A DNA stretch of 41,335 nucleotides from an uncultured Chitinophagaceae bacterium (GTDB lineage: Bacteria; Bacteroidota; Bacteroidia; Chitinophagales; Chitinophagaceae), in contig CALJNC010000022.1 in assembly GCA_937981995.1 (NCBI GenBank), forward strand, positions 1 to 41,335. The letters run 5' to 3'. Below are positions 37,051 to 38,671 of the stretch, in pieces; position 1 is the first letter of the stretch, and each line of letters begins with the position of its first letter. The notes below the pieces were generated by a model. The model saw only the letters and a list, made by a program, of their open reading frames with translations. It searched no databases and had not been told where the DNA came from. Both the position numbers and the translations under genes were made by a program.

Positions 37051-37093
37051 TAGATTTCAGAGAACTATTCTATTAATTCAATTCTTAAATGTT

Positions 37094-37144
37094 TTATTCA
37101 TCCACATCCTCCACAATATTCTTCACTCTACCTACTTGATTCGT
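37094..37144 (-). pseudogene. Remnant 3' end of a second ywbE
   Basis: On the minus strand this stretch encodes TNQVGRVKNIVEDVDE followed by TAA, the same as the end of the intact YwbE at 38468-38515 (TNQVGRVKNIVEDVE) apart from the last residue. A 23-base block (37101-37123) is identical to 38472-38494. The differing codons for T, G, R and V are all synonymous, so this copy was last shaped by selection for protein. An in-frame TGA precedes it, and no further ywbE sequence is seen before the palindromes at 37153. Confidence 0.8.
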
Positions 37145-37152
37145 TCAACTAG

Positions 37153-37244
37153 AAACCTGACAGGTTTTCCTGAATGTCGATGAAGTAAGCCTTCCTAAAA
37201 TATGTTTGCTACTCGTTTGAGACTATAATAAACCTGTCAGGTTT
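37153..37244. repeat. Pair of 15-bp inverted palindromes
   Basis: AAACCTGACAGGTTT at 37153-37167 and AAACCTGTCAGGTTT at 37230-37244. Each is itself a palindrome with 7-bp arms around one base, and each is the exact reverse complement of the other. The first begins a few bases after the ywbE remnant ends. REP/MITE-like short repeats of this kind are found in Bacteroidota intergenic DNA. The 62 bases between them show nothing I can name. Confidence 0.75.
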
Positions 37245-37264
37245 GACAACACAACATTTTATGT

Positions 37265-37289
37265 AATTTCGGAATGTAATTCCGAAATT
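37265..37289 (+). promoter_or_regulatory. Palindromic operator candidate of the AAA ATPase gene
   Basis: Perfect 11-bp inverted repeat AATTTCGGAAT-GTA-ATTCCGAAATT. It ends 6 bases before a TATATTTA -7-like element (37296-37303), so a protein bound here would cover the promoter. It is not followed by a T run, which argues against a terminator. Confidence 0.55.
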
Positions 37290-37295
37290 GCATAG

Positions 37296-37303
37296 TATAT
37301 TTA
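37296..37303 (+). promoter_or_regulatory. -7-like element of the AAA ATPase gene
   Basis: TATATTTA differs from TAnnTTTG at the last base and ends 4 bases before the GTG start at 37308, so the transcript would be leaderless or nearly so. Confidence 0.4.
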
Positions 37304-37307
37304 CAAG

Positions 37308-38450
37308 GTGGAACAACGTTTATTGGTAAAGAAAATAAAGGCTATGGCTAAAAAAATGCCTATCCTTTCTATTACTGGTCCTCGGCAGAGTGGGAAAACC
37401 ACGCTCAGCCAATTGGCATTTCCTACTTATGATTATGTCAATTTGGAGCATCCTGCTACTTTGCTAAGGGCTCAAGCAGACCCCGAGTCATTTCTTAGTC
37501 AGCATAAAAAAGGATTAATTATTGACGAGGTGCAAAAAATGCCCGAGCTTTTTTCTTATATCCAAGTACGGAGTGATGCGAATAAGAAAAATGGAGAATT
37601 TGTTCTGACGGGTTCGCAGAACTTTTTACTCATGGAAAAAATATCACAGTCCTTAGCAGGGAGGGTTTTCGTTTCTTATTTATTACCGTTTTCAATAAAA
37701 GAATTACCTGCTAAAAAAAGGACAACCAATGAATTGATGTACTATGGATTTTATCCAAGAATCTATGACCAAAAAATAGACCCATTGGATTTTTATCCTT
37801 CCTATATTCAAACCTACACCGAGCGTGATATGCGACAAATATCCGAGGTCAACCGTTTGGATATTTTTCAACGCTTTATGAAATTATTGGCCGGTAATAT
37901 CGGTCAAATATTGAATAAAAGTAAACTAGGTAATGCATTAGGAGTGGACGATAAAACGATAGAAAATTGGCTCGGTATTTTAGAAACGAGTTTCATTGCA
38001 TTTCGATTACAACCTTATTATAAAAATTACAAAAAGCGTTTGGTCAAGTCGCCTAAAATTTATTTTTACGACACAGGCTTGGCATGTAATCTTCTAGGAC
38101 TTCGTAGTGCTGAGGAGTTAACGGCGCATTGGGCGCGCGGTGCATTGTTTGAAAATATGGTCATTATAGAAAAAATGAAAAATAAATTCAATCAAGGCGA
38201 ACAACCTAATTTATACTTTTGGCGAGATAGTAACGGGAATGAAATAGATTTATTGGAGGAGCTGCAAGTTGGTAAATTGCGGATAACAGAAATAAAATCG
38301 GCTGCTACATTTCATACTCGATTTTTGGATACCATTACAAAGTTTAAGGTATTAACGAAAGATGTATCTAAGGCAGAAGTGATTTATGATGGTGTGGAAG
38401 CGTTTGACCTGAAAGGTGTGCAGGTGATTAATTGGAAAAAAGCTCAGTAA
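37308..38450 (+). CDS. AAA ATPase with DUF4143 domain
   Basis: 380-residue protein of the large, poorly understood AAA_14/DUF4143 family. The ATPase part has Walker A TGPRQSGKTTLSQ (near residue 24), Walker B GLIIDEVQKMPE, and the sensor-like FVLTGSQNFLLM. A winged-helix-like segment (LGNALGVDDKTIENWLGILE) leads into DUF4143 with SPKIYFYDTGLACNLLG and ARGALFENMVIIE. The end contains GNEIDLLEE and RITEIKSA, the acid-acid-lysine pattern of a PD-(D/E)XK-like fold. The start is GTG at 37308; an in-frame TAG at 37293 rules out anything further upstream. It lies between a ywbE tail remnant and intact ywbE, which marks it as an insertion. Confidence 0.9.
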   Translation: MEQRLLVKKIKAMAKKMPILSITGPRQSGKTTLSQLAFPTYDYVNLEHPATLLRAQADPESFLSQHKKGLIIDEVQKMPELFSYIQVRSDANKKNGEFVLTGSQNFLLMEKISQSLAGRVFVSYLLPFSIKELPAKKRTTNELMYYGFYPRIYDQKIDPLDFYPSYIQTYTERDMRQISEVNRLDIFQRFMKLLAGNIGQILNKSKLGNALGVDDKTIENWLGILETSFIAFRLQPYYKNYKKRLVKSPKIYFYDTGLACNLLGLRSAEELTAHWARGALFENMVIIEKMKNKFNQGEQPNLYFWRDSNGNEIDLLEELQVGKLRITEIKSAATFHTRFLDTITKFKVLTKDVSKAEVIYDGVEAFDLKGVQVINWKKAQ

Positions 38451-38467
38451 GGTAGAACAGACTTTTT

Positions 38468-38671
38468 TTACTCCACATCCTCCACAATATTCTTAACACG
38501 TCCTACTTGATTAGTTTCCAATATCACTTTGATGCCATGTGTATGCTTGGGCGCTTTGGTCAAAATACCTTTGATGACACCTTCGGTTAAAACGCCGGTG
38601 CGCTGATCTTTCTTCAATACAATTTCTACTACTTGGCCTACGCGTATATTTTTTCTTAGGGTCCCGTCCAT
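38468..38671 (-). CDS. ywbE: YwbE family protein
   Basis: 67-residue conserved protein of the YwbE/DUF2196 family, function unknown; the small beta-rich fold suggests nucleic-acid or protein binding. Family motifs are VGQVVEIVLKKDQRTG, LTKAPKHTHGIKV and the end NQVGRVKNIVED. Length is as in Bacillus YwbE. It starts at ATG 38671, divergent from the glycosyltransferase gene with only 31 bases between the two starts, and converges with the ATPase gene (17 bases apart). Its last codons are duplicated at 37094-37144. Confidence 0.9.
   Translation of the reverse strand: MDGTLRKNIRVGQVVEIVLKKDQRTGVLTEGVIKGILTKAPKHTHGIKVILETNQVGRVKNIVEDVE

What the first reader, a model, noticed from the sequence alone, without database searches (positions are those of the whole stretch)
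37094..38671. AAA ATPase gene inserted between a duplicated ywbE 3' end and intact ywbE
The last 16 or so codons of ywbE occur twice in the same orientation, 1.37 kb apart, with the ATPase gene and its palindromes between. The two copies share a 23-base identical core. Outside it the differences within the shared codons are synonymous (T, G, R, V), apart from the extra terminal residue. This is not decay of a recent duplicate; it looks like the tail of another lineage's ywbE brought in with the ATPase cassette, as when an element integrates at a gene's 3' end and restores it.
Basis: partly seen in the sequence, partly recalled or inferred. Interest (0 to 1): 0.65.

Follow-up and report, generated by a model that had tools for sequence, protein, structure and literature searches.

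The report
Acquired gene beside duplicated ywbE tail
A lone ATPase gene of a candidate phage-defence family sits between two versions of the end of the neighbouring gene ywbE, most likely because it arrived from another lineage together with that lineage's version of the gene end, a way of adding genes that can be seen more clearly at another place in a related bacterium.

Summary
In detail: the last codons of ywbE occur twice, 1371 nt apart, around an AAA_14-DUF4143 ATPase gene of PADLOC's single-gene defence candidate PDC-S01. The layout recurs. Direct repeats span 48 of 206 ATPase loci; 24 of these, by my hand sorting, are not palindromes or short arrays, against 2 of 100 neighbouring ORFs. 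It is not specific to the ATPase: 5 of 29 Fic genes show it. Two loci explain it. At L138 a congener has the site without the ATPase and with one copy of the repeated gene. At L095 the displaced lysS tail is 95% identical to the nearest congener, while the tail completing lysS is most like another species. For ywbE itself no donor or exact empty site was found; the reading rests on synonymous-only differences and analogy. Closest known kind: 'insertion with long target duplication' of restriction-modification genes.

The parts
37094..37144 (-). displaced ywbE tail, 16 codons and stop (TNQVGRVKNIVEDVDE*); repeat copy 1 is 37092-37145
37146..37259 (.). spacer between the displaced tail and the ATPase's palindrome, with the inverted pair AAACCTGACAGGTTT 37153-37167 / 37230-37244; origin unknown
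37260..37294 (.). palindrome directly upstream of the ATPase; only copy of its core in the genome (up to 1 mismatch)
37308..38450 (+). AAA_14-DUF4143 ATPase, PDC-S01 family, single copy in this genome
38451..38467 (.). 17 nt between the ATPase stop and the ywbE stop; repeat copy 2 starts at 38463
38468..38671 (-). intact ywbE (67 aa); repeat copy 2 is 38463-38516

Best explanation
A solitary PDC-S01 ATPase gene was acquired from a related lineage by recombination inside the 3' end of ywbE. The incoming DNA carried the donor's ywbE tail, which now completes the intact gene; the recipient's own tail, cut off from its gene, was left on the far side of the insert. Shown: two ywbE tails whose shared codons differ only at synonymous sites; the same layout at other ATPase loci with other genes; a site without the ATPase and with a single copy in a congener (L138); a foreign-like completing tail and a native-like displaced tail (L095, lysS). 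Inferred: which ywbE tail is foreign; that homologous recombination in the tail (23-nt identical core) made one joint; that the other joint was illegitimate or inherited from an older insertion in the donor.
For: 4 of 4 differing shared codons synonymous. Pooling the five coding repeats whose frame I could read and that align without gaps (window, L020, L123, L138, L172): 14 synonymous and 6 non-synonymous codon differences, p 3e-5 against 25% and 0.006 against 40% synonymous. lysS in L095: identity to the nearest congener G420 is 0.93-1.00 in seven consecutive 30-nt windows, then 0.87, 0.77, 0.73 at the 3' end; the distal 147 nt of the displaced copy is 95% identical to G420 against 72-80% (local alignments of 68-148 nt) for ten other congeners, while the completing tail plus terminator scores best with G419, 89% over 133 nt. 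L138: two copies of a 65-aa gene around the ATPase; congener G415 has one copy and no ATPase. L132 and L138, 90% identical ATPases in two congeners, are homologous only from -70 to the stop codon within the compared flanks. One ywbE match in each of the 72 genomes that have any.
Against: No donor: 0 of 34 other ywbE loci have the ATPase and no other ATPase locus of 205 has a convincing ywbE. G001, the only congener with ywbE, has a different left neighbour, so there is no exact empty site for the window. The overlap is only 54 nt. L020 (2 synonymous, 3 non-synonymous) and L138 (2 and 2) do not by themselves favour import, and L095's two tails differ by 7 synonymous and 12 non-synonymous codons and were not pooled. 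In L095 identity to G420 also dips elsewhere in lysS (0.81-0.87 in four of the first five 100-nt windows, where other congeners match as well or better in three), so the gene is mosaic beyond its end; and the first 60 nt of the displaced copy fit no congener well.
Confidence: 0.62

Rival explanations
1. Insertion with long target duplication in place: the ATPase gene entered ywbE's 3' end and the target segment was duplicated by the insertion itself; the two copies diverged later.
For: L138: repeat of 333 nt at 94%, empty site in a congener, 2 synonymous and 2 non-synonymous codon differences. The layout is described for restriction-modification genes (passages).
Against: In the window the cut-off copy should have decayed, but all 4 codon differences are synonymous. 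At L095 the completing tail is not the recipient's.
Confidence: 0.2
2. An integrase-type element that uses ywbE's 3' end as attachment site and restores the gene.
For: Layout: gene end repeated on both sides, gene left whole.
Against: No recombinase in the insert; no other ATPase locus with a convincing ywbE; repeats elsewhere differ in length and gene.
Confidence: 0.03
3. Two tandem ywbE genes, one of which lost its 5' part when the ATPase entered.
For: Both tails look as if they evolved under selection.
Against: None of the 72 genomes with ywbE has two matches; nothing of ywbE is recognisable beyond the 16 codons of copy 1.
Confidence: 0.06
4. Self-mobilisation by the ATPase with its palindromes as ends.
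For: 17 of 183 loci have matching palindromes on both sides, different between loci; cassette borders lie at the palindrome and the stop codon or second palindrome; in 10 genomes chosen because they carry such ATPases 20 of 21 palindrome sites lie beside an ATPase, the last has none within 3 kb.
Against: The window has only the upstream palindrome. No repeats outside paired palindromes in 17 of 17. Fic genes without this enzyme show gene-end repeats as often.
Confidence: 0.07

Closest known systems
Insertion with long target duplication of restriction-modification genes (Nobusato et al. 2000 and Furuta et al. 2010, neither read; passages in PMC3031569, PMC1643837, PMC4978471)
   Same: Defence-type gene flanked by long, variable direct repeats of host sequence; empty site with one copy in a relative (for L138).
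   Different: Other gene family; at lysS the completing copy is foreign-like, so that repeat is not a plain duplication in place.
Gene addition by homology-facilitated illegitimate recombination, as proposed for Vibrio T6SS effector-immunity modules (PMC5361080, passages read)
   Same: Incoming DNA anchored by homology in a conserved stretch; a resident gene end is shifted to the far side of the insert.
   Different: There modules replace effector ends; here the target gene stays whole.
PDC-S01 (PADLOC), AAA_14-DUF4143
   Same: Window ATPase matches PDC-S01 models, best E 1.3e-95.
   Different: The passages that I read treat prevalence and transfer of the family, not its insertion sites.
REPtron-like palindrome-flanked genes (recalled, no call)
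   Same: Some ATPase loci carry their own palindrome on both sides.
   Different: The window has only the upstream one, without copies elsewhere in the genome.

Membership tests
PDC-S01 / AAA_14-DUF4143 ATPase | AAA_14 and DUF4143 domains above curated cut-offs; PDC-S01 model match | tested here: met
   DUF4143 167.9 bits (cut-off 28.1), AAA_14 92.7 bits (27); PDC-S01 318.6 bits
PDC-S01 / AAA_14-DUF4143 ATPase | ATPase fused to a PD-(D/E)XK-type domain | tested here: inconclusive
   E312, D314, E328, K330 invariant in 10 sequences (motif recalled); model pLDDT 87; Foldseek hits Card1/Cdn1 and RuvB/clamp loaders at E 3.5e-5 to 1e-3 with TM 0.20-0.37
PDC-S01 / AAA_14-DUF4143 ATPase | anti-phage activity | not testable with these tools
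   no assay; [quoted passage not shown]
Insertion with long target duplication | long, variable direct repeats of host sequence flank the gene | tested here: met
   54 nt in the window; 27-333 nt at other loci
Insertion with long target duplication | empty site with a single copy in a relative | tested here: inconclusive
   seen for L138; for the window G001 has one ywbE but another left neighbour
Insertion with long target duplication | both copies derive from the recipient's own target | tested here: inconclusive
   window differences all synonymous, which disfavours it; not met at L095
Integrase element at a gene 3' end | recombinase gene within the insert | tested here: not met
   the ATPase is the only ORF of 60 aa or more in the insert
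Integrase element at a gene 3' end | same site used by related elements | tested here: not met
   0 of 34 other ywbE loci; no convincing ywbE in 205 other ATPase loci
Transposon with terminal inverted repeats | matching terminal repeats at both ends | tested here: not met
   window has a palindrome upstream only
Homology-facilitated illegitimate recombination | one homologous and one illegitimate joint with donor DNA | not testable with these tools
   no donor sequence found

The most novel reading that the evidence does not exclude
The ATPase with its nuclease-like domain helps its own spread: it recognises its locus-specific palindrome, promotes breaks or strand exchange beside itself, and so raises the chance that the cassette together with the end of the neighbouring gene is taken up by other lineages, which would make PDC-S01 a minimal self-spreading gene and not only a defence candidate.
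Probability: 0.07. Interest if true: 0.85.

Novelty: new member of a known kind. Interest (0 to 1): 0.42.

Why it matters
PDC-S01 is reported as the fourth most common defence across prokaryotes (PMC12988326, passage), yet the passages that I read do not say how it enters genomes. The lysS case suggests that such a gene can travel with the end of a neighbouring core gene and leave the native end behind as a scar. Such scars mark acquisitions, show the insertion point, and can give core genes hybrid ends that disturb gene trees.

Tried and rejected
Self-mobile element defined by palindromes: attractive, weakened by the Fic control and by the absence of repeats outside paired palindromes (17 of 17). 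Site-specific integration at ywbE. A first search for ywbE tails beside ATPases used a narrow motif; one search repeated it with seven ywbE proteins. Tandem ywbE: none. Plasmids as strain-level evidence: 318 of 72,556 records match; I fetched 6 of the 20 listed and found no direct repeat in any of the 6. Phage records: 5 of 50,697 match, not followed. A first palindrome pattern had wrong spacing and found nothing in 10 genomes; corrected. Promoter and Rfam scans were not run.

Sorting of repeats was by hand: of 30 in set 1, 18 set aside (13 palindrome pairs; L065 and L093 palindrome-like; L110, L117, L137 short arrays), 12 kept; of 18 in set 2, 6 set aside (L143, L144, L147, L170, L139, L178), 12 kept. 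Of these 24 some are short (L149, L160, L179: 27-31 nt) or look like common intergenic or low-complexity repeats (L057, L132, L079), and in 5 the right copy starts more than 47 nt after the ATPase, so 24 is an upper count. The Fic repeats (5 of 29; one of 30 loci had no Fic motif; one repeat is 23 nt and one looks like a dispersed repeat) were not sorted; the like-for-like unsorted ATPase figure is 48 of 206. In the neighbour control 3 of 101 had repeats; one was the window ATPase in a duplicate locus and was dropped.

Literature searched: DUF4143 (1 paper, listing only); COG1373 with mobile (4; one passage read) and with ATPase (6); AAA_14 with mobile (82, the 15 listed irrelevant); PDC-S01 (3 papers; passages of two); long target duplication with restriction-modification (17; passages of PMC3031569, PMC1643837, PMC4978471; in PMC2654758 only the reference was found); homology-facilitated illegitimate recombination (49, 12 listed; passages of PMC5361080 and PMC2884548); variable target duplication (2). 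Nothing in these listings and passages ties PDC-S01 to duplicated gene ends.

Full report
What is there. On the minus strand the intact ywbE (38468-38671, 67 aa, DUF2196 / TIGR03833) is followed by 17 nt, then by an ATPase gene on the opposite strand (37308-38450), then by a second ywbE tail at 37094-37144. The tails form a 54-nt direct repeat, 85% identical, 1371 nt apart, E 1.7e-11. Copy 1 has 16 codons and a stop (TNQVGRVKNIVEDVDE*); nothing of ywbE is recognisable beyond them. Of 14 shared codons 4 differ, all synonymously, one of them AGA against CGT.

The gene between. It carries AAA_14 and DUF4143 and matches PDC-S01, a single-gene phage-defence candidate in PADLOC. The model (mean pLDDT 87) has Foldseek hits to RuvB and clamp-loader AAA+ proteins and to Card1/Cdn1, with low TM-scores; a PD-(D/E)XK motif (recalled) would fit the invariant E312, D314, E328, K330, and PMC12988326 (passages) describes PDC-S01 as an ATPase fused to a PD-(D/E)XK member. 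It is single-copy in this genome; 72 of 396 genomes of the order have a homologue at E <= 1e-60.

Is the layout general? I compared 900 nt upstream with 700 nt downstream of 119 ATPase loci from related genomes (set 1) and 87 from genome contigs and viral contigs (set 2). A direct repeat (E < 0.001) was found in 30 of 119 (swapped-flank controls 3, 2, 1) and 18 of 87 (controls 3, 0, 0; one flank too short). Translated comparison gave 30 of 119 (controls 0, 1, 1). Neighbouring ORFs of 750-1700 nt from the same loci gave 2 of 100 (one duplicate dropped). Sorted by hand, 24 of the 48 are not palindromes or short arrays; 24 of 206 against 2 of 100 is p 0.004. In 19 of these 24 the right copy starts 1-47 nt after the ATPase stop. 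Coding examples: the end of a gene with a T9SS-like tail (name recalled; L020), a LytTR-like regulator (name recalled; L123), lysS (name recalled; L095), a histidine-kinase-like end (name recalled; L069), a whole 65-aa gene (L138), a gene of unknown function (L172).

A control that changes the reading. Fic_N genes from the same order, of similar size, show such repeats in 5 of 29, not different from the ATPase (24 of 206; p 0.37) and more than the neighbours (p 0.006). Published variable segments of E. coli, S. aureus and S. [quoted passage not shown] So the scar seems to belong to how accessory genes are added, not to this ATPase.

Empty site. In L138 (G230) the ATPase lies between two copies of a 65-aa gene, in a row with a sugar transferase gene and a sigma-factor gene (names recalled). 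In congener G415 the order is sugar transferase, one copy, sigma factor, without the ATPase. The loci of G313 and G414 are cut by contig ends and uninformative for this. A 90% identical ATPase in G313 (L132) has other flanks; the two are homologous only from -70 to the stop codon.

Imported tail. For lysS I had 13 congeners of G337. Near its 3' end the gene of G337 is 0.93-1.00 identical to G420 in seven 30-nt windows, then 0.87, 0.77 and 0.73. The distal 147 nt of the displaced copy and its downstream sequence are 95% identical to G420 and 72-80% to ten others (local alignments), while the completing tail and terminator score best with G419, 89% over 133 nt; the two most distant congeners (L255, L256) were left out of this comparison. 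So a native-like tail was displaced and a foreign-like one came in. Against a simple story: identity to G420 is also low (0.81-0.87) in four of the first five 100-nt windows of lysS, and the first 60 nt of the displaced copy fit no congener well; an older insertion in the donor lineage would explain the latter, which is inference.

Application to ywbE. By analogy the intact gene's tail is foreign and copy 1 native. Shown here is only that the shared codons of the copies differ synonymously. Both tails are more like each other than like the ends of the other ywbE proteins printed; the nearest is G001. No donor or exact empty site was found: G001 has one ywbE with the same right-hand but a different left-hand neighbour; 0 of 34 other ywbE loci (33 of the 71 other genomes with ywbE, and one of another family) have the ATPase within the 1.5-kb flanks; and 205 other ATPase loci gave no full-length ywbE hit better than E 0.013.

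Known kind. The layout equals 'insertion with long target duplication' of restriction-modification genes (original paper not read; passages) and resembles the displaced gene ends in Vibrio for which homology-facilitated illegitimate recombination was proposed (PMC5361080, passages). I file it there as a new member; the lysS mosaic adds that such a repeat can be import rather than duplication.

Palindromes. A palindrome (score 11 or more within 100 nt) precedes the ATPase in 52 of 103 and 35 of 77 loci against 4 of 29 Fic genes, and follows it in 19 of 103 and 10 of 80 against 3 of 29. In 17 of 183 loci a matching palindrome stands on both sides, different from locus to locus. In ten genomes chosen mostly for such ATPases, one form of the motif has 21 sites, 20 beside an ATPase and one without an ATPase hit within its 3-kb locus. 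Operator or cassette end: unexplained.

Noticed in passing
L058, L061, L013, L063, L064, L083, L066, L075, L088, L094, L104, L106, L108, L143, L144, L147, L170: ATPase genes with matching 33-49 nt palindromes directly before and after the gene; the sequence differs between loci but matches within each (in L064 as exact inverted, in L083 as exact direct copies). No direct repeats outside them.
   Followed up: partly
L095 (G337), about 60 nt after the ATPase: The start of the displaced lysS tail matches no congener well although the rest is 95% identical to G420, a hint of an older event.
   Followed up: partly
L273 (Fic locus): A Fic gene flanked by a 238-nt, 86% direct repeat that reads like the end of dihydrolipoyl dehydrogenase (gene name recalled).
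   Followed up: no
L241 (G139:C15:66479): The ATPase-type palindrome without an ATPase hit within the 3-kb locus, the only such site of 21.
   Followed up: partly
L316 (Emticicia plasmid pEMTOL02): A PDC-S01-type ATPase lies between araA and an L-ribulose-5-phosphate 4-epimerase gene, on the opposite strand, without a detectable direct repeat.
   Followed up: no
window 37153-37244: Inverted pair AAACCTGACAGGTTT / AAACCTGTCAGGTTT, 62 nt apart; the 15-mer occurs in 6 of 19 genomes searched, own included. Origin unknown.
   Followed up: no
L079 and L156: Two ATPases of this family close together in one locus.
   Followed up: no
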